This document shows, one piece after another, positions 12,582 to 33,126 of a stretch of DNA of 37,167 nucleotides. The position numbers and the translations under genes were made by a program. Every line of letters begins with the position of its first letter. The stretch's first letter is position 1. The notes under the pieces were generated by a model. The model made no database searches. It was not told the DNA's origin and worked only from the letters and a program-made list of their open reading frames with translations. This DNA comes from Sulfuritalea sp. (GTDB lineage Bacteria > Pseudomonadota > Gammaproteobacteria > Burkholderiales > Rhodocyclaceae), in assembly GCA_030696505.1 (NCBI GenBank), contig JAUYSD010000331.1:1-37167 (forward strand), written 5' to 3'.

Positions 12582-14915
12582 CTATGGGGTGACTGTCACG
12601 CCGATGAGCGCCGCCGCCGTTTGCTGGGTTGGCCGTCCGGCACCACTCGTCGCCATTGTGGGCAGAACGGTCACGAGGCTGTTTTGCACCGGTTTCAGTG
12701 CCTTGAATTCGAACTCGACCAGTTCACCGTCGCCGCGGGCGCCGTCGCCAGAGACATTCTGTGTCACAAAGATCATTCCAGCCGCACCAACGATACGTTT
12801 CGTGAAATCAACTTTCTTGTCAGGTTTGGCGAGAAAGCCTCCGGCTCGTGCGTCGATCGCCTCCAGCACCAGCGGGTCATATTTCACCTGGACCGGCAGA
12901 GCGGAAATCGCATCTCGAGCGGACACGCTCAGTTTGAGTTTCATGGTTGCGCCGATCTTGGCCACCGGGCTTCCTTCCCAGCGCAAGGTCGGCGCGGCAA
13001 CGGATTGCCCGCTGTCGGGAGACGCAAGCGGAACCGCGGCAGCACCCTCTGACGCGACCGAAAGCATCGTCGGCACGACACTGTTCGTCGCCACCTGCAC
13101 CACCGCCGCTCCTGCAGATGCTACGGGCGGCGCGAGCGACGTGGTCGCCAAGGCAGCCAGTGGCTTCAGCATCGGATTGTTTTCCGTGCCGGACCAGAAT
13201 TCGGTGGGTACATGCGTCGGCGGCACCAGGCCGCGCACGAGCCGCGGCGTGATCGACAGCACGAGTTCGGTCTTCTGGTTGTCGTCCTTCTGGCTGGCAA
13301 ACAGCCGGCCGACGACCGGCAGGTCGCCCAGGCCCGGAACGCGCTGGGCGGACTTGCGTTCGGAATCGTTGATCAGACCGCCAAGAATCTGCGTCTCGCC
13401 GTCCTTCAGGCGCAGCACGGTCGAGGCATTGCGGGCGCCTATCTGGTAAGACAGACTGCCAGCCTTGCTCGTGACTTCCTTGACCACGGAACTGACCTCC
13501 AGCGCGACCTTGATGGAGATTTCATCATCCGGATAGATGGTCGGCTCCACTTCGAGCTTGAGGCCAACGTCGACGTATTGAACACTCTCGGAAACAAATC
13601 CGGTCGATGTCGATGTGGTCGTGATCACCGGAACGCGATCGCCGATCTTGATCACCGCTTTTTCGCGGTTGTGCGTACGTACCCGCGGATTGGCGAGCAG
13701 GTTGGTGTCACCGACCTCGCGCCGCAAGTTCAGGACCAGCGGCGAAATTGTCGCCCCCGTACGACTCGAATTGGACGTGTTGAGATCACGCAGCGTAAGC
13801 GTCGTACCTGAGCTCGGCAGGGGCACGAGAGAAAGCTGGTTCGGAAACTGGATGCCGAGTTCCGTCAGGCGCGAGCGCTGCACCTCGATCACCTCGACCT
13901 CGAGCATGACTTCCGGTTCGCTGATGTCCTGCGTGGCCACCAGGCGCTCGGCAAGCCGGATCATCGTCGGCGTGTCGCGCAGGATGACCAGATTGAGCTT
14001 GTCGTCTACGAACACGTTCTTCGCCTTGAGCACGGTCTTGAGCATGTCGGCCGTCTGCTTCGCCGCGGCATTGGCGAGAAAGAAGCTCTTGACCACCAGT
14101 TCCTGATTGGCGGACTGCTTCGCCGCCGTGTTCGGATAGATCAGGAGTGTGGTGTCGTTGAGTACGCGCCGGTTGAGCTGATGAGTGGCGAGCAACACAT
14201 CCAGCGCATCTTCCACCGTGACATTACGCAGGAACACCGTGGTCGGCAGATTCGCGGGCACTTCCTTGTCCAGGACGAAGTTGAGGCCGCTGTGGCGTGC
14301 CAGCACCTCGATCACCTGTTTGAGGTTCGCATCGCGGAATTCCAGGGTCACTGGCTTCTTGAAGGTGTTGCGCAGCGTGCTCGGCGATGCCTGATTGCGG
14401 CCCAGGCGGTCATCGATCTTTCGCCGCAAGGACCGTGCTTCAGGAAGTTGCGGGTTTTCCTGGAGTACCCGGTTGAGTCGCAGTTCGGCGGCATCGACGT
14501 TGCCGGCGTCAAACTGCGCGTTGGCATCCTTGAGCAGGGCGGCGATACGCCGTGTCTGCTCAAGGCTCGTGAGCCCCGAGACGGCCCCCTTGTTGTTCGG
14601 ATCGATCTTGATGACGCGTCGGTAGATGGTTTCGGCCTCGTCAAGGCGTCCGGCGCCGCGCTCACGCTGTGCTTCCCCTATAAGGCGTGAACCCGCTGTT
14701 TCACGCGCCGTTATAAAGCGCATGCGAAACTCGGAATTATCCGGCGCTTCCGTGGCGGCCCGCTCGAGTGCGGCGAGCCCCTCCTCAAGCCGCCCATCGG
14801 CGAGCAGCTGCATGCCTTCGCGGTGCGCCATCTGGCCGGCGCAACCATAGAGCGTCAGGATCGCGGCGACCAGAAGCGCGTGGCCGATGCCGCGGAATGT
14901 CATGAAGTCAGTCAT
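12582..14915 (-). CDS. Outer-membrane secretin lipoprotein with TPR and cohesin domains
   Basis: The 777-aa GspD/PilQ/MshL-family protein has a lipoprotein signal ending LYGC, with C25 as the lipid site. TPR-like helical repeats occupy ~30-170 and secretin N-domains ~190-330. The secretin core contains VPGLGDLPVVGRLF and ends TELVLSITPRLVR (~540). An Ala/Val linker follows, then a cohesin-like beta domain (~650-777, LSVSARDAISALPVQVKYDP). It forms the outer-membrane channel. ATG 14915 overlaps the upstream stop by eight bases. An in-frame start at 14930 is less likely. The cohesin tail is not part of classic GspD. Confidence 0.9.
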   Translation of the reverse strand: MTDFMTFRGIGHALLVAAILTLYGCAGQMAHREGMQLLADGRLEEGLAALERAATEAPDNSEFRMRFITARETAGSRLIGEAQRERGAGRLDEAETIYRRVIKIDPNNKGAVSGLTSLEQTRRIAALLKDANAQFDAGNVDAAELRLNRVLQENPQLPEARSLRRKIDDRLGRNQASPSTLRNTFKKPVTLEFRDANLKQVIEVLARHSGLNFVLDKEVPANLPTTVFLRNVTVEDALDVLLATHQLNRRVLNDTTLLIYPNTAAKQSANQELVVKSFFLANAAAKQTADMLKTVLKAKNVFVDDKLNLVILRDTPTMIRLAERLVATQDISEPEVMLEVEVIEVQRSRLTELGIQFPNQLSLVPLPSSGTTLTLRDLNTSNSSRTGATISPLVLNLRREVGDTNLLANPRVRTHNREKAVIKIGDRVPVITTTSTSTGFVSESVQYVDVGLKLEVEPTIYPDDEISIKVALEVSSVVKEVTSKAGSLSYQIGARNASTVLRLKDGETQILGGLINDSERKSAQRVPGLGDLPVVGRLFASQKDDNQKTELVLSITPRLVRGLVPPTHVPTEFWSGTENNPMLKPLAALATTSLAPPVASAGAAVVQVATNSVVPTMLSVASEGAAAVPLASPDSGQSVAAPTLRWEGSPVAKIGATMKLKLSVSARDAISALPVQVKYDPLVLEAIDARAGGFLAKPDKKVDFTKRIVGAAGMIFVTQNVSGDGARGDGELVEFEFKALKPVQNSLVTVLPTMATSGAGRPTQQTAAALIGVTVTP

Positions 14916-15417
14916 TGGCGTTACCAACAAAAATGGTTTGACGGATGTTCAGCGGCAGATACACGAGATGCAGTTGTGTCCCGTCGAACTTGTCGACGAG
15001 ATAGGCGGGCTCGATGCGATCGCCGATGCGGACGATGATCATTTCAGTACCGCGCGTCAGGATGAAGCTGGGCGCCTGACCCGCATCGACGATGCGTCCA
15101 AAAAACTTGAAAGGCAGGGGAGGCGCCTGCGGTGGCGGCGGTGGAGCAGGCGTCGACACGACTGGAGGCGGCGGCTCCCAGGTGCGCAGTGCAAACAGGT
15201 CAACTCTGTCGCGGCCGGGTTCCGGCGTCGCGGCATCCGCGCCAACGAGGGGGAGGCGGCCTGCGGACGAATCCGCAATCGGCGTGTGCGATCGGGAGAC
15301 CGCGGTGTCACCCACTGGCTCGTTCACAAACCAATAGGCGGTCGTCGCCAATAACGCCGCCAAGACGAGATTCCGGCTCCATCGCGCATGCATTGGGACG
15401 GCGAAGGCGGTTTTCAT
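14908..15417 (-). CDS. PilP/GspC-like inner-membrane protein
   Basis: The 169-aa protein has one N-terminal membrane segment (NLVLAALLATTAYWFV, ~15-30) and a Pro-rich linker (EPPPPVVSTPAPPPPPQAPP). A small beta domain follows (FKFFGRIVDAGQAPSFILTRGTEMIIVRIGD). This is the layout of GspC homology-region and PilP proteins, which link the inner-membrane platform to the secretin. It lies between the PilO-like gene and the secretin gene, overlapping both (4 and 8 bases). Confidence 0.8.
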   Translation of the reverse strand: MKTAFAVPMHARWSRNLVLAALLATTAYWFVNEPVGDTAVSRSHTPIADSSAGRLPLVGADAATPEPGRDRVDLFALRTWEPPPPVVSTPAPPPPPQAPPLPFKFFGRIVDAGQAPSFILTRGTEMIIVRIGDRIEPAYLVDKFDGTQLHLVYLPLNIRQTIFVGNAND

Positions 15418-15926
15418 TTGGCGTCCAGTTCGAACGACAGCTTCAGGTCTGCATCGAGCACCTGATCGGTAGCCCGGGCGCGCTGGAGCACGAGGCTGTC
15501 TATTTGTGCGCTGCGGCCGACCGTCAGGGCTTCGCGCAGGTAGCTTCTGATCGGCAGGTAGCCGCCCTTGGTTGGAAGGCTGACTTTAATGCGCCTGCGA
15601 CCGTCCTTGTCGGAAATCGTGTAGGACGATCGATCGATCGTGATGGCTGCCGTTTCTGCGGCAGCATTGAGGCGACGAATGATCTCGATGGGGTCAGAGG
15701 CAGGCTTGAGGCCGGTCGACGACGCATCGGCTTCGACGATAGCCACGTGGACGTTCGGCTCGGGTGCGCGAAGGGTGGCGGCGAGTTTCCGGGCGTCACT
15801 CCTGGCGGAGTCCAACTGGATCTGCGCCGGCGCGAGTGCGCTGAAATAGAACGATGCGCAGAAGAGGAGCAGCCCAACCCCGACGAAACCGGGGATTCCG
15901 AGCACCTGGAGGTAGCGCGAGTTCAT
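15414..15926 (-). CDS. PilO/GspM-like assembly platform protein
   Basis: The 170-aa bitopic protein has a single membrane helix (~12-30, GFVGVGLLLFCASFYFS) and a periplasmic coiled and ferredoxin-like part, as in PilO/GspM. Sequence identity to named families is low, and the call rests on length, topology and the order M-N-O-P-secretin. ATGA overlaps occur on both sides. Confidence 0.7.
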   Translation of the reverse strand: MNSRYLQVLGIPGFVGVGLLLFCASFYFSALAPAQIQLDSARSDARKLAATLRAPEPNVHVAIVEADASSTGLKPASDPIEIIRRLNAAAETAAITIDRSSYTISDKDGRRRIKVSLPTKGGYLPIRSYLREALTVGRSAQIDSLVLQRARATDQVLDADLKLSFELDAK

Positions 15927-16441
15927 CGCGGCGCCTCCTGCCAGTTTGCCCGTACCGAGAACCTGATGGGACGCCGAGGATGGTCGCGAGCGATTTCGTG
16001 CTCGGTCAAGCTTACGTCTGCCAAGACGGAGAGACTCGACAGTCGTTTGACGTAGTCCGTCACGGTGGTGAAGTCCTTGGCTTCGCCACGCAGGGAGATC
16101 TCGGCGGATCCCGGCTCAAGGGACAGCAACGTGACGGTTTCGTCAGCCGCCGCTTCCAATCCGCCGAACAGCGCTTCCCACTGCTCGGCTGACCGTGTCA
16201 TCCGCGTTGGTGCTTTGTCGTTCGCCGGGCGATTCTCCGATCGAGCATCAAACAGGCGCTGGCGTTCCACGTCGCGCTTCAGCCGCGCCACGCTCCCTTC
16301 AGCGCGCGTCAGTTCATCACCCACGTCGACATGATGTTGGAGCAGCGCCGCCGTTAGGCCGATACCGGCGATCAGCAAAACAATACCTGGCAGCGGCCAG
16401 GTCTCAGGCTTCTTTTGGAAATCGAGATCCAGTCGCTGCAT
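15923..16441 (-). CDS. PilN-like assembly platform protein
   Basis: The 172-aa protein has a short cytoplasmic N-terminus (QRLDLDFQKKPETWP). PilN uses such a stretch to bind PilM. A membrane helix (~18-36) is followed by a coiled coil (~40-65) and a periplasmic alpha/beta domain ending in RFSVRANWQ. Function is inferred from layout and from its place directly after the PilM-like gene. Confidence 0.75.
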   Translation of the reverse strand: MQRLDLDFQKKPETWPLPGIVLLIAGIGLTAALLQHHVDVGDELTRAEGSVARLKRDVERQRLFDARSENRPANDKAPTRMTRSAEQWEALFGGLEAAADETVTLLSLEPGSAEISLRGEAKDFTTVTDYVKRLSSLSVLADVSLTEHEIARDHPRRPIRFSVRANWQEAPR

Positions 16442-16446
16442 CGGGA

Positions 16447-17238
16447 TCAGGCCAGGAAGGCGGCGGCGGGATGGCCGGGCCAGGGAACAGGCACGGGTCG
16501 AACCCGTCCGGTCATGTCAGCCGGAATAGCGGTAGTCCCCGTCAGATCGCGAATCCAGAGTGTGGTATTTTCGGGGAAGGGACAAAATGCGGCCTCTTCC
16601 TCCAAGGCATGTGCGAAGGCATTCGCGTCGTCGAGTGGCACGAGGCGACTGGTGATCGATTTCCACGCGCCGTCCGCAACGTGCGCAATCGTCGCCCGTC
16701 CGGATTCGACCAGCGCGAAGATCGCCGGGCTGTCTTTCAGGCTTGCGCCGACGCGGTTGAAAGTCTCCATGAGGTCAGGACGGATCGAGTGGATTCTGCA
16801 GCCCTTGCCGACGCTGGCACGCAGATCTTCGAGCAGTCCGGATGGAATGGCGGCGCCCAGTGTCGATAGTCCTTTCGGACTTTCGCTCAGGGTGATGTGC
16901 CAGTCTTGGCAGAGGCTGCCGAAGGTCTTGCGAAACACAATGACGCCCAGGGCGGCGCGCTCGTCCGCTGTTTGTGCGTGCGGATCGCCGGGGATCACGG
17001 CATAGCGCACGAAGTGACTCGACAGAACGAAATCGATACTTGCCGTTTGCCATTTCGCGTCGCGAACTAGGTCGTGAAATGCGGCGAGGCATGGGCGCCA
17101 CGGCGTCGTCGAATCGGCATCGAGGCGCACCTCACATTGCCTGATCGGACGCGGACGCAAGCCCCTGCCGAGGCGGACCGCCGTCAACCGGTCCGGCGCC
17201 AGGCCGACGATCAGCCGGTCACGCCACAAAGGTGACAC
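16447..17238 (-). CDS. PilM/GspL-cytoplasmic-like actin-fold protein
   Basis: The product is 263 aa from GTG 17238 (VSPLWRDRLIVGLAPDRLTAVRLG). I choose this start because it overlaps the gspE end by 20 bases and begins exactly at the first beta strand. The frame is open further upstream but antisense-like. The beta-strand pattern at the start and the 'FVLSSHFVRYAVIP' stretch resemble PilM/GspL ATPase-fold domains. It would couple the GspE ATPase to the PilN/O platform. Confidence 0.72.
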   Translation of the reverse strand: MSPLWRDRLIVGLAPDRLTAVRLGRGLRPRPIRQCEVRLDADSTTPWRPCLAAFHDLVRDAKWQTASIDFVLSSHFVRYAVIPGDPHAQTADERAALGVIVFRKTFGSLCQDWHITLSESPKGLSTLGAAIPSGLLEDLRASVGKGCRIHSIRPDLMETFNRVGASLKDSPAIFALVESGRATIAHVADGAWKSITSRLVPLDDANAFAHALEEEAAFCPFPENTTLWIRDLTGTTAIPADMTGRVRPVPVPWPGHPAAAFLA

Positions 17239-18757
17239 GGTTGATCTCCTCGAGTGTGGATTGCCCCTGTCGAACCAGTTCCAGTGCGGCCTCCCGCAAG
17301 GAGCACATGCCGTCGCGTGCGGCGGATTCGCGCAGCTGGCGGGTCGGCGCACCGGCGACGATGGCTTCGCGCATATCGTCGGTCAGGCGCAGCAGCTCGG
17401 CAATCGCGCGCCGCCCCTTGTATCCGGTACCGCGACATTGCGCGCAGCCGCAGCCGCGGCGGAACGAAAACGTCGGGCGACTTTCCGTGGCGATGCCGGA
17501 TTCCGCCAGCAATTCGTCCGCGGGATGGTCTTCAACACTGCAGTTCGTGCAATTGATCCGCACCAGCCGCTGCGCCAGGATGCCGTTAATCGCCGAGACG
17601 AAGCTGTGCGCCGGTACGCCCATATGGAGAAAGCGGCTGATGACGTCGAAGACGTTGTTGGCGTGCACCGTGGTCAGCACCAAATGCCCCGTCAGCGCTG
17701 ATTGCACGGCGATTTCGGCCGTCTCCGAATCGCGGATTTCGCCGACCATGATCTTGTCCGGGTCGTGGCGAAGAATTGAGCGCAGTCCGCGGGCGAAGGT
17801 CAGCCCCTTCTTTTCGTTGACCGGAATCTGGAGGACATTGGGCAATTGGTATTCGACCGGATCCTCGATAGTCACAATCTTGTCACGGCCGTCGTTGATC
17901 TCGCTGATGACGGCATACAGTGTTGTGGTCTTGCCACTGCCGGTCGGACCCGTGACCAACAGCATGCCGTAGGGCTCGCGGGCCAGCCGGCGCACCCGTC
18001 GGATCGTGTCTTGCTCGAAGCCGAGCGACTCCAGGGTCAGGCTGCTCAGCTGGTCGGTCAGGGCGTGCTTGTCGAGAATGCGCAGGACGGCATCCTCGCC
18101 GTAAATGCTCGGCATGATCGACACGCGGAAATCGACATCGCGACCATCGATCGATACCTTGAAGCGCCCATCCTGCGGCACCCGCCGTTCGGCGATGTCG
18201 AGCTCGGCCATGACCTTGATGCGCGAGATCACGTGTTCGGCGGTCTGGACGCTGCGTCGCTCTGCAATGCGCGAGAGGACGCCGTCGAGACGATACTTGA
18301 CGCGTAATCCGTCGGCGGTCGTTTCGAGATGAATATCGCTGGCGCCGGCGCGGTAGGCGTCGTACAGGGTCGAATTCGCCAGGCGAACAATCGGGCTGGC
18401 GTCGGCGTGAATCGTATCGAGCTGAAGCGACTCGATCGAATCGTCAGTGGCGTCAGTAGCGCCATCTTCCGCATCAATGGCATCCATTGCGCGCACATCA
18501 TCGGAATGGCTTGCAAGGACAGCAGAGATATCGCCTCGCTGCGCAAAGCACAGCGAAAATGGCTCTGCGAGCCGAGCGCCGGCCCAGGGCAGGAAATCGG
18601 CAGCCGCTTCGCAGTCGATGGCCAGCAGCAAGCGGCCGTCCTCGCTGCGCAGCGGAAGGCAGGCACGTTGCGCAGCTTCGCCATAGGGAAGGACATCGAA
18701 CGCAGGTGTGAGGGCGTGGAGATGATCGATGCCCAACACGGAGATGGCGGCGTTCAT
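17219..18757 (-). CDS. gspE: GspE-type secretion/assembly ATPase
   Basis: The 512-aa ATPase has a short N-terminal domain, then the PulE core. Visible motifs are SDIHLE, Walker A GPTGSGKTTTLYAV, Walker B ILRHDPDKIMVGEIRDSETAEIA, the His box LTTVHANNVFDVI and the zinc-binding C-x2-C pairs (INCTNC and CGCAQC). It drives pseudopilus growth. ATG 18757 (MNAAISVLG) overlaps the gspF end by four bases. The frame is open upstream through gspF, but that part is a shadow. PilB/MshE-like naming is possible. Confidence 0.93.
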   Translation of the reverse strand: MNAAISVLGIDHLHALTPAFDVLPYGEAAQRACLPLRSEDGRLLLAIDCEAAADFLPWAGARLAEPFSLCFAQRGDISAVLASHSDDVRAMDAIDAEDGATDATDDSIESLQLDTIHADASPIVRLANSTLYDAYRAGASDIHLETTADGLRVKYRLDGVLSRIAERRSVQTAEHVISRIKVMAELDIAERRVPQDGRFKVSIDGRDVDFRVSIMPSIYGEDAVLRILDKHALTDQLSSLTLESLGFEQDTIRRVRRLAREPYGMLLVTGPTGSGKTTTLYAVISEINDGRDKIVTIEDPVEYQLPNVLQIPVNEKKGLTFARGLRSILRHDPDKIMVGEIRDSETAEIAVQSALTGHLVLTTVHANNVFDVISRFLHMGVPAHSFVSAINGILAQRLVRINCTNCSVEDHPADELLAESGIATESRPTFSFRRGCGCAQCRGTGYKGRRAIAELLRLTDDMREAIVAGAPTRQLRESAARDGMCSLREAALELVRQGQSTLEEINRVTFVA

Positions 18758-19956
18758 TGCAGGCTGCCCGCCAGTTCGAAAATCGGCAGGTACAGGAGCA
18801 CGACTATCAAGGCGATGAAGAGACCGATGCCCAGCATCAGCAGCGGTTCGAACAGCTTGACGAACCGCTCTATCCAACGCGAGGTGTCGGCATCGAGAAA
18901 GTCGGCGATGCGAATCATTTTTTCGCCGATGTCGCCGGACTTCTCGCCAATCTTGAGCAGGTCGCTGGCGACCGCGGGTGCCAGTCCGCTTTCTTCGAGG
19001 GCTGTCGATAAGGTCGATCCGGCGCGGATCCGGGTAATCGCAGTCTCCATTGCGCTGCGACGTTCCTCGTTGAGCAGGACGCGAGCCAGTTCGAGCGCAC
19101 CAACAATAGAAATGCCGCTCTGCACTAGCGTGCCGAGTGTCCGGTAGAAGCGGGCCAGAACGAATGCTTGATAGTGGTTCCGCAGCGCCGAGCGGGACGT
19201 GAGGTTGCGCCACAGGCGCCTTGCACCGTCCTGCTTCCTGAATATCCAGGCAGCAAGAACTGACAAGAAGATGAATCCAATCGCGAGTGCGGCGCCATAA
19301 TCCTGCACCAGCGTCCCCCATTGCATCAGCAGCTTCGACATCCAGGGCAGGTCGCGACCAAAGTCTTCGTAGATTCGGCTGAAACGGGGGACCACGTAGG
19401 TCATCAGAAAGGCGATGACGAGGCCACCGACTCCGAGCAGCAAAGCCGGATAAATGGCGGCAGACTTCACACGTTCGCGCACGACATCCATCTGTTCGCG
19501 GTACACGATGAAACGGCGCAGGGCTTCGGAAAGGCCGCCAGTGCGCTCACTGGCCGAAATCAACGCTACATAGAGCGGTGGAAATATCTCCGCCTTCGTG
19601 CTTACGGCCATGGAGAATGGCTTGCCTTCGCGCAGTTCGCGGATCAAGACATCGATTACGGCACGGCGTCCCGGTATCTGTTCCTTGCGTGCCAAAGCAC
19701 CGAGCGCTTCGATGATCGACAGACCGGCATCAAGCAATGATCGCAATTCGTGGCTGAACAACAGGACATTGAAGCTCGCTTGTTGTCTCAGCGACACGGC
19801 GTGGTGCCACTGCTGCCGGATCGAGATGACGTCCATGCCATCGGCCGACAACCGGGCGCGGGCTTCCTCTGCATTCGGGGCTTCCAGCGAGCACAGCACA
19901 ATGCCGTCGCGGGGATGAAGTGCCTTGACCTCGAAGTGCACGGAATGCGCTACCAA
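18754..19956 (-). CDS. gspF: GspF-type inner-membrane platform protein
   Basis: The 400-aa protein has two T2SSF repeats, each preceded by a helical bundle, and three membrane segments (~168-190, ~220-240, ~370-392). Typical stretches are LLFSHELRSLLDAGLSIIEALGAL and SGISIVGALELARVLL. It is the polytopic platform partner of the ATPase. It overlaps gspG by seven bases and gspE by four. Confidence 0.93.
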   Translation of the reverse strand: MVAHSVHFEVKALHPRDGIVLCSLEAPNAEEARARLSADGMDVISIRQQWHHAVSLRQQASFNVLLFSHELRSLLDAGLSIIEALGALARKEQIPGRRAVIDVLIRELREGKPFSMAVSTKAEIFPPLYVALISASERTGGLSEALRRFIVYREQMDVVRERVKSAAIYPALLLGVGGLVIAFLMTYVVPRFSRIYEDFGRDLPWMSKLLMQWGTLVQDYGAALAIGFIFLSVLAAWIFRKQDGARRLWRNLTSRSALRNHYQAFVLARFYRTLGTLVQSGISIVGALELARVLLNEERRSAMETAITRIRAGSTLSTALEESGLAPAVASDLLKIGEKSGDIGEKMIRIADFLDADTSRWIERFVKLFEPLLMLGIGLFIALIVVLLYLPIFELAGSLQ

Positions 19957-20387
19957 TTGGTGATGTCGGCGTCTTCGCCGCTACCGCCCGAACGCCCGTC
20001 GCGGCCGAGCGAGGAAAGGTCGTACTCGCCATGCTCGCCCGGGTTCTTGTAAATGTAGGACTTGCCCCACGGATCGAGCGGCACGTCCTTCTTGAGGTAG
20101 GGGCCAGCCCAGCGCGAGGTGCCTGCCGGCTTTGCATTCAATGCGCTGAGGCCTTGTTCGGTGGTGGGATAGCGGCCGACATCCAGACGATATTGATCGA
20201 GGGCCTTGTCCAGTGCATCGATCTGCGCGCGCGCCGCCTTGACTTCGGCCTTGCCGAGTTGGCCGAAGTATTTCGGGCCGACGTAGCCGGCCAGCAAGCC
20301 GATGATGGCGACGACGACCAGCAATTCAAGCAAAGTGAATCCGCTGAATTCCCCGAACGGTATCCGCGAGCGTGTCGTGCGACGCAT
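19950..20387 (-). CDS. gspG: GspG major pseudopilin
   Basis: The 145-aa protein has leader MRRTTRSRIPFGEFSG, then FTLLELLVVVAIIGLLAG with Glu5. The body has the GspG marks RYPTTEQGLSAL, GPYLKKDVPLDPWGKSYIY and the calcium-loop region GEYDLSSLGRDG. ATG 20387 has a strong GGAGG ribosome site upstream. The frame extends to 20630, but that addition has no signal features. It is the first gene of the minus-strand operon, so its promoter should lie just above 20388. Confidence 0.95.
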   Translation of the reverse strand: MRRTTRSRIPFGEFSGFTLLELLVVVAIIGLLAGYVGPKYFGQLGKAEVKAARAQIDALDKALDQYRLDVGRYPTTEQGLSALNAKPAGTSRWAGPYLKKDVPLDPWGKSYIYKNPGEHGEYDLSSLGRDGRSGGSGEDADITNW

Positions 20388-20746
20388 TGTTGTGAGTTCC
20401 TCCCCGACGCGGATTCTATACGCTGCATGAGGGGCAGGGCAGTGCCCATGCGCAACTCGGCTACCAAGGGGATGCCACGCCACTGGGAATTCTGCTCGCA
20501 GCGGATTTTGCGAGGTTTCGCTGCGCCGCACCAACAAGGACTTCGACGTAATCGCTCGACGCAGATGCTTAGGAAACAACCAGCATATTTGTTTCTGCCG
20601 CTGCGTAAGTATTCTGCCCGCAGAATGCATAGGGAGGTTCCTGGCACGCCAGAGAAGTCTCGAATCAATCGAATCGACGTAGATCGATCGCTAAAGACAT
20701 TCGTATTTCATCGAATAATGATATATGCAAGCGGGCTACAAAAACA
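20388..20746. other. Divergent intergenic region, secretion operon / RHS
   Basis: I see no gene here. GC content falls clearly past ~20560. On the minus strand a weak -10-like TATAGA near 20408-20413 could serve gspG, but no good -35 goes with it. Short AT-rich repeats (AATCGAATCGAC-like) occur around 20660-20690. Confidence 0.4.
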
Positions 20747-20986: not shown

Positions 20987-21063
20987 AACAGTAAGTCATG
21001 GCTTGGCTATTGGCATGTTCCATCAGTGGTTTTCGTCCTGGTTTTTGGTCGGGGAGATTATTT

Positions 21064-24000
21064 TTGTCTAATTCGCTACGCTCACTGGTAACGGTGCTGC
21101 TGCTCGCGGTGGGCTTTGGTCCGTTTCTCGCACAGGCTGAATCGGTCCCGGCGGATTTAGCGTTCGGGCAGCAGGGATACCGGATCAATCAAAACCCGGC
21201 GTATGGGTGGTGGCGAACGTATCAGGAGGCAATGGTGGCGCTTTGTCCAGGTGGTACGACGATTTACAATGCGTCGGGTCTGCCGTTGAATATTGAATTC
21301 ATTTGCAATGCCTCTGGTGGTCATGGACTATTGTCGCAGTCCTGCTCCAATGCGTCCGGTGGTTGGTTCACGGGAGGCGCTCCTTGCGCACCAACGGGTG
21401 GGTATTCCTGTCCAGCCGGCCAAAACTGGACCCTCTCCGGTACGCAATGCGCCCGTCCCGACTGCACGCAATACCAGACACGGGACGCATCGACCGGCAT
21501 ATGTCGGATCACTTCCTGCCCTGCCGATAGCGAATTCGTTGATGGAGTCTGCCTAAAAAAATGCTTGCCTGATGAGTTCGGTATTCCTGGCGCCTGCAAT
21601 GTTAGTCTCGCCCCCAAACAAGTCGGTCCGCCAGAGAAGGATGCGCTGACCTGTCCTAAAACCAAACTCGCACTGCCCGCCACTGGCCTCCCCATCACCC
21701 TGGGCACCGGCAACAAATACCTTCCCGAGTCAGACTACGTCGGCAGCGGCATCTCCTCATTGACTCTGGTTCGCACGTACAACAGCGCCCCCTCGAACCG
21801 GGCGAAGTACGACCTGGCGAACCAGTGGTCGCTCGGAATCCAGCGCGGCCTCAGCCTCGACTCCACGAGTGATCTCACGATAGCGGTGGCCGTCCGACCC
21901 GACGGCAAGGCGCTGCGCTTCACCCTGAGCGGCAGTGTGTGGATCGCGGACGCCGACATTGTCGACCGCCTGACCCAACTCAAGACCGGCGCCACGATCA
22001 CCGGCTGGCGCTACTGGAACGCTGCCAACAACGCCCAGGAAGACTACGACGCCAGCGGACTGCTGCTGCGCATCACCGCCGCCAACGGCCTCGTCCAGCA
22101 ATTCTCCTATAGCGACGGCAATGGCGGCCTCCAGTACGCCACCACCGCCCACGTGAACGGCTACCAGGCCCCGACCTGCACCCGACCCGCCGGCTTCTCC
22201 GTTCCGACGACTGCCGGTGTTCTGATGTGCGTCAGCGACGGCCAAGGCCGCCAGCTCAACCTCAGCTACGACGCATCGAATCGCCTCGACCGCTTCGCTG
22301 ACCCCCTGGGCCAGATCACCCAGTACGCGTTCAACGCCAACAACAACCTCGCCAGCGTCACCTACCCGGACGGCAAGACCCGGACCTACCACTACGAAGA
22401 CGCCACCTACAAGAACGCGCTCACCGGCATCACCGACGAGAACGGCGCAAGACACGCCACCTACGGCTACGACAGTCAAGGCCGGGCCACCACCGAGCAC
22501 CTCGCCGGCGGCGCCCTGGCCACCACGCTCGCCTTCGGCACCAACAACACGACGGTGACCGACGCCCGCGGCACCGCGCGGACCTACAACTTCCAGACCA
22601 TCCTCGGCGTCACCAAGAGCACCGGCGCCAACCAGCCCGGCGGCAGCGGTTGCGGCCCGGCATCCAGCGCCCTGAGCTACGACGCCAACGGCAACATCGC
22701 AACCCGCACCGACTTCAACGGCACCGTCACGACGTATGCCTACGACCTCGCACGGAACCTCGAAACCCAGAGGATCGACGCCAGCGGCAGCCCCGAAGCC
22801 CGCACCCTCAGCAACCAATGGCACAGCACCTGGCGCCTGCCCGTCAAGATTGCCGAACCCCTGAAGCTCACCATCCTCATCTACAACGGAGACAGCACCA
22901 ACGGCTCGACCATCACCTGCGCCCCGGCGACCGCGACGGTCCCCGGCCCCACGGGAAGCAGCACCGTCCCCCTCAGCGCCCTGTGCCAGAAGATCGACCA
23001 AGCCACCACGGATGCCAACGGCAGCCAGGGTCTCAATGCCACGCCCAGTGGCAGCCCGCGGACCTGGGCCTGGACCTACGACAGCTACGGCCAGATCCTC
23101 ACCGCCGACGGCCCCAGAACCGATGTGAGTGATGTCACCACCTATACCTACTACCCAGCCACCGATCCCGACCTCGGCAAACGCGGCAACCTCACCACCA
23201 TCACCAACGCCCTGGGCCACATCACGCGGATCAGCGCCTACGACGCCAACGGCCGGCCGCTCACCATCCTCGACCCCAATGGACTCACCACCACGCTGAG
23301 TTACGACCCCCGCGGCCGGCTCACCGGCAAGACCGTCGGCACCGAGACCACCACCTACCAGTACGACGGCGTCGGTCAACTCATCCGACTGACCCTGCCC
23401 AACGGTGCCACACTGAGCTACACCTACGACGCCGCCCATCGCCTCACCGGGATCAGCGACGGCCTGGGCAACACGATCAGCTACACGCTCGATGCCCTGG
23501 GCAACCGCATCAAGGAAGACGTCAAAGACCCCAACAATCAACTCAGCCGTACCAAGAGCCGCGCCTTCGACGCCCTCAACCGGCTCTACCAGGACATCGG
23601 CGCGCAGAACCAGACCACCACCTACGCCTACGACCCCAACGGCAACCTGACCGGCATCCTCGATCCGCTGAACCGGCTCACCGGCAACACCTACGATGCC
23701 CTGAACCGGCTCATCCGCATCACCGACCCCGCCAACGGCCAGACCATGCTCGCCTACAACGGCCAGGACCGCACGATCGCCGTCACCGACCCACGCAACC
23801 TCGTCACCCGCTACACCGTGGATGGCCTGGGCAACCTCACCGGACAGACCAGTCCCGACACCGGCAGCACCCAGATCGACGTCGATGCCGCCGGCAACCC
23901 GGTGCGCCGCACCGACGCCAAGGGCCAGACCACCATCACCCAGTACGACGCGCTCAACCGGCCCACGCAGATCAGCTACGCCGACGGACGCCAGGAACGC

Positions 24001-25014
24001 TTCACCTGGGATCAGCCCAGCGGCGCCGGCGGCGGGGGCAGTGGCGGCAGCAGCGGAGGAGGGGGCAGTGGTGGTAACGGCGCCCTGGGTCGCCTCATCC
24101 AGATCGACGAACTGCAGAACACCGCACTCATCGCCAGCACCCAGTACGGCTACGACCCCCAGGGCCGGGTGATCAGTGAAACTCGCACTGAGCCCCGGAC
24201 CGAAGGCACGCTGACGCTCGCCACCGGCTACACCTGGAGCAACGGCGATCTCATCGGTCTCACCTATCCCTCCGGCAAGCAGCTCGCCTATGGCCGCGAC
24301 AGCCAGGGTAGGGTCACCCAGATCACCCTCACCGACAACGGCGTGACCCGGACCGTCCTCAACCAGGTCCAGTACCACCCCTTCGGCGGCATCAAGAGCT
24401 ATGTCACGGGAGCGGGGCAGACCATCACGCGCAACCAGGATCTCGATGGACGCATCAACGCCTATAGCCTGGGCACCGGCCTGTGGCAAATCGGCTACGA
24501 CGATGCGGGGCGCATCGGCTACCAGACCGACACCACCAATGCCGCCAACACTGCCAGCTACGGCTACGACAGCCTGGACCGGCTGACCGGCACGGTCCTG
24601 CCCACCACGAACCTGGGCTACGGCTATGACGCCACCGGCAACCGGACCAATCAGAGCGTGGGCGGGGCGACTTACAGCTACCAGATCAGCCCCACCAGCA
24701 ACCGCCTCACCGGCATCAACACGGCCCCGCCCAAGAGCTACGCCTACGATGCCAACGGCAGCGTCATCGGCGACGGACAGAACAGCTTCGGCTATGACGC
24801 CCGGGGGCGTATGACCCAGGCCGTGACCGCCGCGGGCAATACCCAGTACCGGCTCGATGCCCTGGGCCGCCGGATCGCCAAGACCAACAGCACGGAAGAC
24901 ACCCGTTTCGTCTATGACCGCGCCGGCCACCTGATCAGCGAGACCGATGCCGCGGGCCGACCCAAACGGGAATACCTCTGGCTCGGTGATCTGCCGGTGG
25001 GAGTGCTGCAATGA
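21064..25014 (+). CDS. RHS/YD-repeat shell protein lacking the RHS core (split RHS, part A)
   Basis: The protein has ~1316 aa from TTG 21064. This start has GGGGAG at seven bases and gives a clean signal peptide (SLRSLVTVLLLAVGFGPFLAQA). ATG 20998 adds 22 residues and has no clear ribosome site. Counting from 20998, residues ~70-225 are Cys-rich (13 Cys) and ~235-320 match the RHS N-terminal (DUF6531-like) domain. From ~400 to ~1330 there are many YD repeats (YDANGN, YDALNRL, YDPQGR). A Gly/Ser linker lies at ~1009-1028. It ends at REYLWLGDLPVGVLQ, exactly where other RHS proteins continue into the DHLGTPR core. That core is in the next gene, whose ATG overlaps this stop. Confidence 0.88.
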   Translation: MSNSLRSLVTVLLLAVGFGPFLAQAESVPADLAFGQQGYRINQNPAYGWWRTYQEAMVALCPGGTTIYNASGLPLNIEFICNASGGHGLLSQSCSNASGGWFTGGAPCAPTGGYSCPAGQNWTLSGTQCARPDCTQYQTRDASTGICRITSCPADSEFVDGVCLKKCLPDEFGIPGACNVSLAPKQVGPPEKDALTCPKTKLALPATGLPITLGTGNKYLPESDYVGSGISSLTLVRTYNSAPSNRAKYDLANQWSLGIQRGLSLDSTSDLTIAVAVRPDGKALRFTLSGSVWIADADIVDRLTQLKTGATITGWRYWNAANNAQEDYDASGLLLRITAANGLVQQFSYSDGNGGLQYATTAHVNGYQAPTCTRPAGFSVPTTAGVLMCVSDGQGRQLNLSYDASNRLDRFADPLGQITQYAFNANNNLASVTYPDGKTRTYHYEDATYKNALTGITDENGARHATYGYDSQGRATTEHLAGGALATTLAFGTNNTTVTDARGTARTYNFQTILGVTKSTGANQPGGSGCGPASSALSYDANGNIATRTDFNGTVTTYAYDLARNLETQRIDASGSPEARTLSNQWHSTWRLPVKIAEPLKLTILIYNGDSTNGSTITCAPATATVPGPTGSSTVPLSALCQKIDQATTDANGSQGLNATPSGSPRTWAWTYDSYGQILTADGPRTDVSDVTTYTYYPATDPDLGKRGNLTTITNALGHITRISAYDANGRPLTILDPNGLTTTLSYDPRGRLTGKTVGTETTTYQYDGVGQLIRLTLPNGATLSYTYDAAHRLTGISDGLGNTISYTLDALGNRIKEDVKDPNNQLSRTKSRAFDALNRLYQDIGAQNQTTTYAYDPNGNLTGILDPLNRLTGNTYDALNRLIRITDPANGQTMLAYNGQDRTIAVTDPRNLVTRYTVDGLGNLTGQTSPDTGSTQIDVDAAGNPVRRTDAKGQTTITQYDALNRPTQISYADGRQERFTWDQPSGAGGGGSGGSSGGGGSGGNGALGRLIQIDELQNTALIASTQYGYDPQGRVISETRTEPRTEGTLTLATGYTWSNGDLIGLTYPSGKQLAYGRDSQGRVTQITLTDNGVTRTVLNQVQYHPFGGIKSYVTGAGQTITRNQDLDGRINAYSLGTGLWQIGYDDAGRIGYQTDTTNAANTASYGYDSLDRLTGTVLPTTNLGYGYDATGNRTNQSVGGATYSYQISPTSNRLTGINTAPPKSYAYDANGSVIGDGQNSFGYDARGRMTQAVTAAGNTQYRLDALGRRIAKTNSTEDTRFVYDRAGHLISETDAAGRPKREYLWLGDLPVGVLQ

Positions 25015-28000
25015 AGGCCGCGCTGAGCTTCCTGCCCCGTCTGACGACAACGGTCTTGCGGATGCGCCGTCTGGGTCTTGGGCTCGTCGTCTTGATGACT
25101 GCGTTCGCCACCGTCCTTCCCGCGGCCCAAGCCGCCGATCGCGATGATCGCGGGAGCGTGCGTCAGGAGCGACGCGATGACGACCATCAAGCCGGGCCGG
25201 GGGAGCAGGGCGGACGGGCGTCCGACAAGGACCAGGCGCGGGAGAAGGAGCGGAATGACGATCGGGACCGCGCCAAGGTTCAGGTCAGCCTCACGGCCCC
25301 GGTCACCGGCACCATCGTCACTGCCCCGGCGACGATCACCCTGACGGCCGCGGCACAGTCCTCGCAGAAGAACCATCCGGTCACCCACGTCGAGTTCTAT
25401 CAGGGTGCGACGCTGATCGGTACCGCGACGACTGCACCCTATACGGTGACGTGGAGCGCCATCCCGGCGGGCAGCTACCGCCTCACGGCGAAGGCTTATA
25501 CCGACAAGGCCGACCAGCGCGAGGCCAGAGGTAAAGAGAAGGATAAGGATAAGGCCAAGGACGAGAAGGCCAAGGACGTCGCTGTCTCGGCGCCGGTGGA
25601 TATCCTGGTCAATGCCCCGCCCGTCGTCGTGCTGACCAGCCCAAGTGCCAATCAGGTGGCCAATGCCCCGGGCAGCGTCACTATGACTGCGAATGCCATG
25701 GACAGCGACGGCACCATCGCCCAGGTCGAGTTCTACAACGGCGCCACCTTGATCGGCAGCGCGACGGCCGCACCCTACACCATCACCTGGAGCAACGTCC
25801 CGGCCGGGACCTACAGCCTCACCGCCCGTGCCACCGACAACCACGGCGCCAGCACCACCACCATCGCCCTGCCGGTGATCGTCAATGCCTTGCCAGTGGT
25901 ATCGCTGGGCACGAGCGGCGCGCCCTATGTCGCCCCGGCCAACGCTACGCTGACCGCGACGGCCGCTGATAGCGACGGCACGATCGCCAAGGTCGAGTTC
26001 TACAACGGCACGACCTTGGTCGGCACCGCCACCAGCGCCCCCTATGCCGTCAGCCTGACCGCCCTGGCGGCGGGAACCTACAGCCTCACCGCCAAGGCTA
26101 CGGACAACCAGGGCGGGGCGAGGACCTCGCCCGCCGTGACGCTGACGGTCGCGCCCAACCAGTTGCCGACCATCACCTTGACCAGTCCGGCCCCCAATCA
26201 GATTGTTGTCGCGCCGGCCACGCTCACCGTGACGGCGAATGCCACGGACAGCGACGGCACCATTGCCAAGGTCGCCTTCTATCAAGGCAGCACCCTGATC
26301 GGCACCGCCACGACGGCGCCCTACAGCATCACCTGGAGCAACGTCCCGGCCGGCAGCTACAGCCTCACCGCCGTGGCCACCGACGACAAGGGCGGCATCA
26401 CCACGTCAGCGGCAGTATCGGTGACGGTCAATGCCTTGCCCGTGGTCACGCTGACCAGCCCGAATCCGGACCAGATGGTCAATGCGCCCGGCAGCTTTAC
26501 GCTGACCGCGAACGCCACGGACAGCGACGGCATGATCGCCAAGGTCGAGTTCTATCAAGGCGCCACCCTGATCGGCACCGCCACTACGGCACCCTACACG
26601 GTCACCTGGAACAACGTCCCGGCCGGGACCTACAGCCTCACCGTCCGTGCCACCGACAACCTCGGCGGCAGCACTACCTCGAGTCCGGTCTCGGTGATCG
26701 TCAATGCGCTGCCGACCGTCAGCCTCACCAGCCCGACGGCCAATGCCATCATTGCCGCCCCGGCCTCGGTCACCGTGACGGCGAATGCGTCAGACACCGA
26801 TGGCAGCATTGCCAAGGTCGACTTCTACCAGGGCGCCACCCTGATCGGCACCGCCACGACCGCCCCCTACAGCATCACCTGGAGCAACGTGCCCTCGGGC
26901 AGTTACAGCCTCACTGCCACCGCCACAGACAACCTGGGCGGGCAGGAGAGCTCGACACCGGTACCGATCACGGTGGATGCACCGCCCACGGTGGCGCTGA
27001 CCAGTCCCAGTGCCGGATCGGTCGGCATCGCCCCGGCGAACTTCACCCTGACGGCGAATGCCGCCGACAGCGACGGCACGATTGCCAAGGTCGAGTTCTA
27101 CAGCGGAACAACCCCGATCGGCACCACCACCACGGCACCCTATACGCTGAGCTGGAACGCCGTCAGTCCCGGCAACTACAGCCTCACCGCCATAGCCACG
27201 GACAACCTTGGCCTTCAGACCACCTCAGTGCCGATCACCATCAGCGTGATCGCCAACAGCCCACCGACGATCAGCCTGACCAGTCCGACCCAGAACCAGA
27301 GTTTCAAGGCGCCGGCCAGCATCACGCTGACGGCGAACGCCAGCGACCCGGACAACAATCTGGCGAAGGTGGAGTTCGTGCAGAACGGGACCCTGATCGC
27401 GACGGTGCTGAGCCCTCCCTACACCGCCACCTGGAGCAACGTCGCGCAGGGCAGCTATCAGATCACGGCGGTCGCGACCGATGCGGTCGGGGCGCAGACG
27501 ATGAGCGACCCGGTCACGATCACGGTGACCCCGGCCCAGGCCAGCCTCTACTTCATTCATCCCGATCATCTGGGGACGCCGCGGCTGGTGACGGATGAAA
27601 CGAACACCATCGTCTGGCGCCACCTGCCGACCACGGAGCCCTTCGGCAACACGCCGCCCGAGGAAGATCCCCAAGCCGCCGGCAGGCGCTTCGAGATGCC
27701 GCTGGCGTTTCCGGGGCAGTACCGGGACCGGGAGTCCAACCTCAATTACAACTTCTTCCGGGACTATGATCCGGGCAGAGGTCGGTATGTGCAGAGCGAT
27801 CCGATCGGACTGGCGGGCGGCATCAATACCTACAGCTATGTCAATGGGAATCCGATTAGCCGCATCGATCCGCTCGGGCTAGATTCATATCTCGTCAACA
27901 GAAGCCTCCAAGCCGTGCAGGTTTTCGGATTCGACGTGTCTGCTTCATCGCGACTGAACCCACTGACGCATACCCTTGTGGCGATCACTAATCCTGACGG

Positions 28001-28319
28001 ATCAGTAGCCACGACATACAGTTGGGGCAACGAAGCCAATATGCGGGGATGGAATGTAAATCAGCCGCTTGATCTGTCAGCAGCGGCTGAGGCTATTCAG
28101 AAAGGAAGAGCAGAAAGAGTTGGTGGAACCGACCTAGACCCATTTGTCGCTCAGGCATTTGGCCTAGTCAACAGCGAGCCACAACATTCCAATGGGGTTG
28201 TTACCTTTAATTGCAAGCTCGAAGCTGATCACCTTTTGTACAAGGCGAAACAGCTCTATCGTCAGTCAACGAGATCAGGACCAATTGTCGATGGCTTCCC
28301 AATTCGGCCAAAGTACTAA
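25011..28319 (+). CDS. Ig-like repeat protein with RHS core and toxin tip (split RHS, part B)
   Basis: The 1102-aa protein has a signal peptide (~1-41, ending PAAQA), a highly charged stretch (43-88), and eight Ig-like beta repeats (~89-844). The RHS core follows (845-957): IHPDHLGTPRLVTD, LAFPGQYRDRES, FFRDYDPGRGRYVQSDPIGL and DPLGL. The ~145-residue variable tip has lower GC. It has H987 in THTLVAI and N1067-C1068 in FNCKLEADHLL, the His-before-Cys order of permuted papain-like (NlpC/P60) toxins. A hydrolase role is inference. GGGAG lies seven bases before the ATG, which overlaps the stop of part A. Confidence 0.85.
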   Translation: MKAALSFLPRLTTTVLRMRRLGLGLVVLMTAFATVLPAAQAADRDDRGSVRQERRDDDHQAGPGEQGGRASDKDQAREKERNDDRDRAKVQVSLTAPVTGTIVTAPATITLTAAAQSSQKNHPVTHVEFYQGATLIGTATTAPYTVTWSAIPAGSYRLTAKAYTDKADQREARGKEKDKDKAKDEKAKDVAVSAPVDILVNAPPVVVLTSPSANQVANAPGSVTMTANAMDSDGTIAQVEFYNGATLIGSATAAPYTITWSNVPAGTYSLTARATDNHGASTTTIALPVIVNALPVVSLGTSGAPYVAPANATLTATAADSDGTIAKVEFYNGTTLVGTATSAPYAVSLTALAAGTYSLTAKATDNQGGARTSPAVTLTVAPNQLPTITLTSPAPNQIVVAPATLTVTANATDSDGTIAKVAFYQGSTLIGTATTAPYSITWSNVPAGSYSLTAVATDDKGGITTSAAVSVTVNALPVVTLTSPNPDQMVNAPGSFTLTANATDSDGMIAKVEFYQGATLIGTATTAPYTVTWNNVPAGTYSLTVRATDNLGGSTTSSPVSVIVNALPTVSLTSPTANAIIAAPASVTVTANASDTDGSIAKVDFYQGATLIGTATTAPYSITWSNVPSGSYSLTATATDNLGGQESSTPVPITVDAPPTVALTSPSAGSVGIAPANFTLTANAADSDGTIAKVEFYSGTTPIGTTTTAPYTLSWNAVSPGNYSLTAIATDNLGLQTTSVPITISVIANSPPTISLTSPTQNQSFKAPASITLTANASDPDNNLAKVEFVQNGTLIATVLSPPYTATWSNVAQGSYQITAVATDAVGAQTMSDPVTITVTPAQASLYFIHPDHLGTPRLVTDETNTIVWRHLPTTEPFGNTPPEEDPQAAGRRFEMPLAFPGQYRDRESNLNYNFFRDYDPGRGRYVQSDPIGLAGGINTYSYVNGNPISRIDPLGLDSYLVNRSLQAVQVFGFDVSASSRLNPLTHTLVAITNPDGSVATTYSWGNEANMRGWNVNQPLDLSAAAEAIQKGRAERVGGTDLDPFVAQAFGLVNSEPQHSNGVVTFNCKLEADHLLYKAKQLYRQSTRSGPIVDGFPIRPKY
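25275..27542 (+). repeat. Tandem array of eight Ig-like domain repeats
   Basis: The coding repeat period is ~273 bases (91 residues). Units begin near 25275, 25618, 25890, 26163, 26437, 26710, 26983 and 27262. Each unit has LTSP near the start, then DSDGTIAKVEFY, GTATTAPY, TWSNVPAGTYSLTA, ATDN and a closing VTVNALP. Unit 1 is longer and carries a Lys/Asp/Glu-rich insert (KEKDKDKAKDEKAKD). High identity between units suggests recent duplication or gene conversion. Confidence 0.85.
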
Positions 28320-28596
28320 GCTCCTCGTACTTGCAACCAGTACCTTAGCCATATTGCTGGCAGCATATTTGTGGCTATTGCCGACATTTCCTGCTTACAG
28401 CGCTTGGAGCTACGTCTTGGCGTGGGTCTCAATGTTGGTATGCTTCATTGGCTCAACTGCTATCTCCTTGAGGGCAATGGATGCCAGCCGACCCGGATGG
28501 TCAAACGCGCTCCGCGGACTGTCAGTTGGATTGGTGGTCACGGCGGCGGTGCTTATGATTTACTTTGTGGTTGCCGTCAAGATACGTGGTTCTTGA
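28291..28596 (+). CDS. Small three-helix membrane protein, probable immunity to RHS tip
   Basis: The 101-aa protein has three predicted membrane segments (~11-30, ~38-60, ~73-97). ATG 28291 overlaps the end of the RHS tip gene by 29 bases, and base composition is lower GC like the tip. Genes placed directly after RHS tips usually encode immunity proteins. A membrane immunity protein would suit a toxin acting in or through the envelope. No family recognised. An upstream start at 28192 would overlap the tip by more and is less likely. Confidence 0.65.
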   Translation: MASQFGQSTKLLVLATSTLAILLAAYLWLLPTFPAYSAWSYVLAWVSMLVCFIGSTAISLRAMDASRPGWSNALRGLSVGLVVTAAVLMIYFVVAVKIRGS

Positions 28597-28818: not shown

Positions 28819-29241
28819 CTATCCGCCGACGAGTGGCACCGCCTGAGCCGGCGTGACGATGGCGATGCCCTGATACTGCCCACCCAGCTTGAGCAGATGC
28901 TTGTCGCCGGAAACGATGAGATCGGCTTGGGCCGTCAGGGCGCAGGCCAGCACATGATCGTCGTCCGCATCATCGGCGACGACGCGCGGCACGTCGGTGG
29001 GCGTCGCCATGGTAGCCAGCCGCCGAATCTCGCCGACGATCCCGAGCGGCGTCAAACCCGCTGTCGCCAGTCGCTTGGCGAACTTCTCGCGTGACACCAC
29101 ATCGAGCAACTCCGCCATCAGCACCGGACTGCTGCACAACTCAAAAACCTGCGCCCGCGCATCGTCGAGTAGGCGGCGGGGCGGGCCATGGGGCGAGAGC
29201 AGCGCTGAGACCAGGGTATTGGTATCGAGTACGACCCGCAC
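28819..29241 (-). CDS. PIN-domain ribonuclease toxin (VapC-like)
   Basis: The 140-aa protein belongs to the 'putative toxin component, PIN family'. It has MRVVLDTNTLVSALLS with the first acidic residue D6, E44 in LMAELLDVV, VADDADDDHVLACAL with the second acidic cluster, and DLIVSGDKHLL with the last. These residues hold the metal for RNA cleavage. The start is GTG 29241, two bases after the upstream antitoxin stop, so the pair is coupled. On a mobile element it may act as an addiction or defence module (inference). Confidence 0.85.
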   Translation of the reverse strand: MRVVLDTNTLVSALLSPHGPPRRLLDDARAQVFELCSSPVLMAELLDVVSREKFAKRLATAGLTPLGIVGEIRRLATMATPTDVPRVVADDADDDHVLACALTAQADLIVSGDKHLLKLGGQYQGIAIVTPAQAVPLVGG

Positions 29242-29875: not shown

Positions 29876-29940
29876 GGTGTTTGCCGTCGAGTGATGCGAA
29901 AGGACAGCCATAACCTTAACCCCCGTTTTACGCGATGCGA

Positions 29941-29976: not shown

Positions 29977-30026
29977 AGATATTTTTATCCAAACCCCCTT
30001 GACAGCTTTTTAGCGGAGACCCGGAC

Positions 30027-33125: not shown

Positions 33126-33126
33126 C

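What the first reader, a model, noticed from the sequence alone, without database searches (positions are those of the whole stretch)
20998..28319. RHS protein split in two, with an Ig-repeat array and a second signal peptide at the break
Seen: part A stops at WLGDLPVGVLQ. Part B resumes with LYFIHPDHLGTPRLVTD after a new signal peptide, a charged linker and eight Ig-like repeats. The stop and start overlap as ATGA, with GGGAG seven bases before the second ATG. Known: in ordinary RHS proteins these two segments are contiguous in one chain that forms a closed shell around the tip. Inference: the shell and the core/tip may be made and exported as two chains that reassemble. The Ig rod might then anchor the tip to the surface or extend it. 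If so, this is a bipartite RHS delivery design I do not know as a described system.
Basis: partly seen in the sequence, partly recalled or inferred. Interest (0 to 1): 0.82.

Follow-up and report, generated by a model that had tools for sequence, protein, structure and literature searches.

The report
Two-chain RHS toxin cage with stalk
A bacterial toxin cage that is usually built from one protein is here encoded as two exported proteins, a cage without its lid and a separate stalk-plus-lid-plus-tip, and the same cut recurs in related genomes, so it looks like a real design and not a broken gene.

Summary
Chain A (20998-25014) is an RHS shell that stops where the RHS-associated core should begin. 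Chain B (25011-28319) has its own signal peptide, eight Big_7 Ig domains, the core/autoprotease and a variable tip. It is neither an error nor general decay: 20 A chains in 18 genomes (five families of one order) stop within 0-2 codons of the same alignment column; 16 of the 20 are followed by a B gene with a core. B's stalk is a swappable module (1-8 Ig, dockerin/PKD, CBM96, Golvesin_C, or none), B genes outnumber A genes, and paralogous B chains differ mainly in the tip. A second, mid-shell break occurs in eight other pairs. TcB/TcC already build one RHS cocoon from two chains, so the kind is known; this cut site, second signal peptide and stalk are the new part. Unexpected: all eight type-1 genomes tested carry a cohesin domain, typically on a type II secretion (T2SS) secretin, and 4 of 15 type-1 loci tested lie beside T2SS genes. 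Best reading: both chains are Sec-exported, B closes and arms A, and the T2SS carries the complex out. Reassembly and T2SS export are inferred; structure prediction failed (pLDDT 33).

The parts
20998..25014 (+). chain A: signal-peptide-like start, cysteine-containing N-terminal part without a family match, DUF6531, RHS shell; stops where the core would begin
25011..28319 (+). chain B: signal peptide, charged linker, eight Big_7 Ig domains, RHS-associated core, tip
24999..25014 (+). junction: GGGAG, seven bases, ATGA overlap of the A stop and the B start
25272..27535 (+). stalk: eight Big_7 Ig domains (approximate ends)
27543..27881 (+). RHS-associated core with the PxxxxDPxGL autoprotease motif intact
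27882..28319 (+). variable tip, no Pfam or NCBIfam match
28291..28596 (+). small membrane-like ORF overlapping the end of B; possible immunity gene by position only, no family match
12582..14930 (-). secretin (GspD-like) with a C-terminal cohesin domain, PF00963 E 2.6e-9
14908..20630 (-). rest of the T2SS operon up to gspG (T2SSG) next to chain A; gspE by Pfam, gspF and the M/N/O/P-like names by position and recall

Best explanation
This is a two-chain, Sec-exported RHS polymorphic toxin. Chain A is an RHS cage without its lid. Chain B is an adhesive or tethering stalk, then the RHS-associated core that in one-chain RHS proteins spirals in, closes the cage and cuts off the tip, then a toxin-like tip. 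The overlapping or closely spaced genes are translated in coupled fashion. Each chain crosses the inner membrane by its own signal peptide; B's core then caps A with the tip inside and the stalk projecting from the lid; the neighbouring T2SS with the cohesin-bearing secretin moves the complex out. The split lets one cage serve several interchangeable stalk-lid-tip chains. SHOWN: the two-gene architecture, its conserved break point, modular stalks, variable tips, the surplus of B genes, the association with T2SS. INFERRED: reassembly, export by the T2SS, what the stalk binds, toxicity of the tip. The confidence is for the whole mechanism; for the two-chain architecture as a conserved design alone I would say 0.95.
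For: Same stop column in 20 A chains of 18 genomes, 16 with a core-bearing B right behind. Signal-peptide-like start in 15 of those 16 B chains by my rule and in 7 of 9 A chains. Stalk plus core dN/dS 0.11-0.48 in seven comparisons. Paralogous B chains share stalk and core and differ in the tip; 10 A chains against about 18 B genes in eight genomes. A-end and core distances correlate over nine pairs, r 0.63, p 0.002. In solved one-chain RHS proteins both segments lie in one chain and the core seals the cocoon (PMC8765631 passages). Cohesin in 8 of 8 type-1 genomes against 20 of 83 others; 4 of 15 type-1 loci beside T2SS genes.
Against: No direct evidence that A and B bind; both structure predictions failed. 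G1299 has an A chain with no core-bearing B in the fetched stretch; G219, G229 and G304 have Ig-core B genes but no A match at 1e-15 and no cohesin. G018's pair looks decayed. dN/dS of A is 0.58-0.66, only weakly constrained. The A-core correlation is also expected from plain co-inheritance. In the eight genomes tested, 11 of 15 loci were not beside T2SS genes or ended first. B would carry an unshielded tip until it meets A.
Confidence: 0.55

Rival explanations
1. The two proteins work apart: B is a stand-alone stalked toxin or adhesin whose core only frees the tip, and A is an open YD shell with another role.
For: B-type genes without an A match in G219, G229, G304; an A without a core-bearing B in G1299; B genes outnumber A genes.
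Against: A ends exactly where the core begins in one-chain relatives (35 of 37 frames with both segments join them through 4-15 residues); B follows A at once in 16 of 20 cases, and 3 of the other 4 are cut by the contig end.
Confidence: 0.22
2. YD-shell adhesin rather than toxin: as in teneurins, the shell serves contact with other cells or surfaces and the tip is not a delivered toxin.
For: Stalk modules are adhesive or carbohydrate-binding in kind: Ig, CBM96, Golvesin_C. The window's tip has no family match.
Against: Tips are polymorphic behind a conserved core, one relative's tip is Ntox37, and orphan tips lie downstream in the window, the usual marks of polymorphic toxins.
Confidence: 0.12
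3. Readthrough or frameshifting at ATGA makes one fused chain.
For: Overlap of stop and start in the window and four other pairs.
Against: Stops are TGA, TAA or TAG; many pairs have spacers of 5-108 nt; B has its own signal peptide, which would be internal in a fusion; a ribosome-site-like stretch precedes several B starts.
Confidence: 0.03
4. Broken or misassembled gene.
For: One-chain relatives exist, for example G001 of the same genus (L048) and G1431 (L235). G018's pair does look decayed.
Against: Same break in 17 other genomes, with separate signal peptides and different stalks inserted; dN/dS below 1 on stalk and core.
Confidence: 0.02

Closest known systems
TcB-TcC cocoon of Tc (ABC) toxins
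   Same: Two separate chains form one RHS cocoon; the C-terminal core is an aspartyl autoprotease and the variable tip lies inside (PMC8765631, passages).
   Different: A has no SpvB or beta-propeller match; here both chains have signal-peptide-like starts, the break is at the lid and not inside the shell, and B carries a stalk. The second type of pair found here (mid-shell break) is closer in layout.
One-chain T6SS RHS effectors (RhsA, Tse5, Tse15)
   Same: Shell and core match by sequence. Cleaved pieces can stay together without a covalent bond: Tse5 elutes as one peak, its fragments part in urea (PMC9637101, passages).
   Different: One chain; no PAAR domain match in A; signal peptides instead.
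Signal-peptide RHS polymorphic toxins with adhesive modules
   Same: RHS toxins assigned to T2SS-type export, with Ig or carbohydrate-binding modules at the N-terminus, among the repeats or near the tip (PMC3482391, passages).
   Different: No split into two exported chains in the passages I saw.
rhs C-terminal displacement and orphan tips
   Same: Tips exchanged behind a conserved core and left downstream (PMC2935791, title and start of abstract in a search listing; details recalled).
   Different: In several relatives the repeated unit is a whole second chain with signal peptide, stalk and core (L036, L038, L086, L103).
Cohesin-dockerin pairs
   Same: Cohesin on the secretin; Dockerin_1 on B chains of G079.
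   Different: Cohesin sits on a secretin and dockerin on a toxin-like chain; binding untested; the window's genome has no dockerin match.

Membership tests
RHS/YD-repeat polymorphic toxin | array of RHS/YD repeats | tested here: met
   RHS_repeat 3.2e-88, 20 stretches in A
RHS/YD-repeat polymorphic toxin | RHS-associated core with PxxxxDPxGL motif | tested here: met
   TIGR03696 1.3e-22; motif read in B; cleavage itself untested
RHS/YD-repeat polymorphic toxin | variable tip behind a conserved core | tested here: met
   tips 10-32% identical per block in eight comparisons of relatives' B chains
RHS/YD-repeat polymorphic toxin | immunity gene behind the tip | tested here: inconclusive
   small ORF 28291-28596 without family match
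RHS/YD-repeat polymorphic toxin | toxicity of the tip | not testable with these tools
   none
TcB-TcC of Tc toxins | SpvB and beta-propeller part on the shell chain | tested here: not met
   only RHS_repeat and DUF6531 in A at E up to 1
TcB-TcC of Tc toxins | two chains that form one cocoon | not testable with these tools
   no complex prediction available; single-sequence models failed
TcB-TcC of Tc toxins | TcA partner gene | not tested
   none
T6SS RHS effector | N-terminal PAAR domain | tested here: not met
   no PAAR match in A
T6SS RHS effector | linked VgrG or T6SS genes | not tested
   only chosen neighbours were annotated
T2SS substrate | signal peptide | tested here: inconclusive
   signal-like by my own hydrophobicity rule in both chains
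T2SS substrate | loss of secretion without the secretin | not testable with these tools
   gene neighbourhood and co-occurrence only
cohesin-dockerin docking | cohesin and dockerin in one genome | tested here: not met
   window genome has cohesin but no dockerin match at 0.01; G079 has both

The most novel reading that the evidence does not exclude
A separate class of secreted RHS weapon: one shared, lidless cage (A) is closed by any of several interchangeable stalk-lid-warhead chains (B), and a dedicated cohesin-bearing T2SS exports or holds the complex, in some species by a dockerin in B's stalk binding the secretin's cohesin, so that the loaded cage stays on the cell surface.
Probability: 0.3. 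Interest if true: 0.82.

Novelty: new variant of a known kind. Interest (0 to 1): 0.63.

Why it matters
RHS cages are mostly read as one chain that folds around its own toxin, with TcB/TcC the known exception. A conserved cut exactly at the lid, with a second signal peptide and a changeable stalk, would mean that lid and tip can be loaded from outside the shell chain and mixed between cages. How RHS toxins with signal peptides leave Gram-negative cells is little tested; the linked cohesin-bearing T2SS is a direct candidate. Such pairs are easily taken for broken genes.

Tried and rejected
Decayed or misassembled gene: rejected, the same break occurs in 18 genomes. Ig array as the conserved feature: rejected, the stalk varies. 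ATGA as the conserved signal: only in part; the other pairs have spacers of 5-108 nt. Relatives on viral contigs: two scans gave none. One clade for all type-1 A ends: neither shown nor rejected (AU p 0.211); eight of nine group weakly (80/76) and L093 lies apart. Likeness of the tip to the orphan tip at 35722: none. AlphaFold on A (residues 216-1338) and on the end of B (last Ig, core, tip), single sequence: pLDDT 33, discarded, no fold search made. The genome-contig scan gave one relative, L003. Paper searches in which I saw no description of this design: (0 papers for six phrases such as split, bipartite, two-gene or two-component Rhs); listings only except the five papers of which I saw passages or a listing as cited; the library is open-licence PMC without preprints.
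Full report
OBSERVATION. Chain A is 20998-25014 and chain B 25011-28319, with ATGA at 25011-25014 and GGGAG at 24999-25003. A has DUF6531 and RHS repeats in 20 stretches, B has eight Big_7 stretches and the RHS-associated core at residues 876-957. The autoprotease motif, PxxxxDPxGL in the literature (PMC8765631, passages), reads PISRIDPLGL in B and is intact. A 1097-aa open frame on the minus strand at 21757-25050 I take to be an effect of composition; it was not tested.

SAMPLES. A search of 101 genomes of the same family with the window's core matched 30; several of the best hits sat in short open frames, as expected for a separate core gene. Two profiles, last Ig plus core (A1, seven rows) and the end of A (A2, four rows), were then used: A1 on 399 genomes of the order (92 with a match at 1e-20), 369 of the class (23 at 1e-35) and 398 of the phylum (15 at 1e-30); A2 on 395 genomes of the family (23 at 1e-30). 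The samples overlap. Stretches were fetched for chosen hits only, so the counts of architectures below are counts among what I fetched, not rates. Matches over the full Ig-plus-core profile were seen in the window's order and, outside it, in G1011.

TYPE-1 PAIRS. In 20 A chains of 18 genomes the stop lies 0-2 codons after the last column of the A2 profile: window, L036, L039, L041, L086 (two), L088, L093, L095, L103, L225-L232, L234, L236. Four of these rows (window, L036, L039, L041) built the profile. The genomes fall in five families (f1, f15, f24, f46, f50). L088 shows only the last 50 codons of A. Sixteen of the 20 are followed by a B gene with a core, in L041 a cut one. L231 has a B start with Ig at the contig end, L230 and L232 stop at the contig end, and L226 (G1299) shows no core-bearing B. 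The last residue is Q in 15 of 20, R in L093 and L230, E in L227, L229 and L234. By my start choice B begins in the ATGA in the window, L036, L095, L228 and L234; the other pairs have 5-108 nt between. A signal-peptide-like start was found by my rule in 10 of 10 B chains that follow an A, and in 5 of 6; the sixth, L228, looks alike by eye. For A chains the rule fired in 7 of 9. Among frames that hold both segments, 35 of 37 join them through 4-15 residues and two (L049, L055) have over 370 between. One-chain relatives include G001 of the same genus (L048) and G1431 (L235). G1307 (L238) is one chain with a 148-residue gap at this place, perhaps an intermediate. G018's pair looks decayed: A lies in two frames and the core is cut.

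WHAT VARIES. The stalk is a module: Big_7 from one to eight; Dockerin_1 with Big_7, and PKD in one of two, in G079; CBM96 with Big_7 in G301; five Golvesin_C stretches in G469; nothing evident in L236. In the six within-genome comparisons of B chains, identity is high through most of the stalk and core and falls after it; over all eight comparisons the tip blocks are 10-32% identical. dN/dS of stalk plus core was 0.11-0.48 in seven comparisons, and of A 0.58-0.66 in three. In the eight genomes with an A there are ten A chains against about 18 core-bearing B genes, not counting fragments in G018 and G301. G469 has one A and four cores in a row (L103), one of them in a short frame.

DESCENT. On a tree of 30 A ends, eight of nine type-1 rows group (80/76), the inner six better (98/94), and L093 is apart; one clade for all nine is not rejected (p-AU 0.211). 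On a tree of 75 cores, with few columns and many open forks, the window core, a long branch, falls in a set of 14 rows of which 13 are type-1 cores (96/86); type-1 cores as a whole need seven changes. So at least part of the family shares one old split, and more than one origin is open. A-end and core distances correlate over nine pairs (r 0.63, p 0.002), as expected for partners but also for plain co-inheritance. The 20 genomes of the window's own genus shown without a match have no A2 match at 1e-30, so the locus may have been acquired.

A SECOND BREAK. Eight other pairs are cut mid-shell, B having a signal-peptide-like start (by eye), some 480-600 residues up to the core, mostly repeats, then core and tip: L042, L043, L096-L099, L101, L102. 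In G013 (L051) an Ig-like part ends A, and B is signal peptide plus core.

THE T2SS LINK. The window's T2SS operon lies divergently, 367 bp from chain A, and its secretin ends in a cohesin domain (PF00963, 2.6e-9). Cohesin matched in 9 of 14 genomes: the eight with a type-1 A, and G095 (mid-shell pairs). It was absent from G219, G229 and G304 (Ig-core B genes, no A match at 1e-15), G001 and G013. Base rates: 33 of 200 genomes of the order and 17 of 80 core-bearing genomes, 20 of 83 with three positives that were left out there. Fisher, 8 of 8 against 20 of 83: 3.7e-5; with the three B-only genomes counted as type-1, 8 of 11: 0.0023. Neither is corrected for relatedness, the 83 were not all checked for type-1 pairs, and not every cohesin frame is a secretin. 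Of the seven other T2SS regions fetched, five keep the order gspG-F-E ... D-pseudopilins with some small genes below threshold (L191, L193, L195-L197), G316's is rearranged (L192), and G018's showed only GspD and pseudopilins (L194). T2SS genes lie beside chain A in 4 of the 15 type-1 loci searched for them: window, L103 (divergent, about 0.65 kb), L095 (same strand, about 2.4 kb) and L226 (same strand, about 0.5 kb); several of the others end soon. They are also near the one-chain loci L235 and L238. Dockerin_1 matched in 1 of 14 genomes, G079, four of its five places on B chains.

MECHANISM. In solved RHS proteins the C-terminal conserved region spirals into the cocoon and seals one end, and in RhsA and Tc toxins it is an aspartyl autoprotease (PMC8765631, passages); sequence matches put both segments in one chain there. 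The simplest reading is that B's core does this in trans for A. That pieces can hold together without a bond is plausible: Tse5 elutes as one peak and its three fragments are parted in urea (PMC9637101, passages). The stalk would then project from the lid. My two structure predictions failed and no complex prediction was at hand, so reassembly remains inference.

NOVELTY. Two-chain RHS cocoons are known (TcB/TcC), and RHS toxins with signal peptides and adhesive modules are known (PMC3482391, passages). PMC4612132 (passages) groups symbiont YD genes with TcB and TcC and showed nothing closer. I saw no description of a break at the lid with a second signal peptide and a stalk in the searches; subscription papers and preprints were not searched. 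I call it a new variant of a known kind.

Noticed in passing
window 35722-36252 and 36596-36997: Two orphan RHS tips with remnants of the core end; the second matches phospholipase A2 (PF00068, 5.8e-7, under the curated cut-off).
   Followed up: partly
window 29495-34272: HTH regulator, CHC2 primase-like protein and tyrosine integrase between chain B and the orphan tips: probably a mobile element inserted in the tip array (inference).
   Followed up: partly
window 28819-29241 (-): PIN-domain protein (PF13470, 6.1e-21).
   Followed up: no
window 12582-14930 (-) and L169-L177: Secretin with a cohesin domain; similar cohesin matches in frames of 750-920 aa in nine of 14 genomes.
   Followed up: partly
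L042, L043, L096-L099, L101, L102: A second kind of two-chain RHS pair, cut mid-shell, with signal-peptide-like starts on the second chain.
   Followed up: partly
L051 6473-14153 (-): Variant pair in G013: Ig-like part at the end of A, B is signal peptide plus core plus tip; a second B copy follows.
   Followed up: no
L238 3-2765 (+): One-chain RHS frame with a 148-residue gap between shell end and core, near T2SS genes.
   Followed up: no
L182 (G079:C125): A 4726-aa open frame in G079 also carries a dockerin match.
   Followed up: no
L053 (G000:C358): A second RHS core in the window's own genome, in a 677-aa frame open at the contig end.
   Followed up: no
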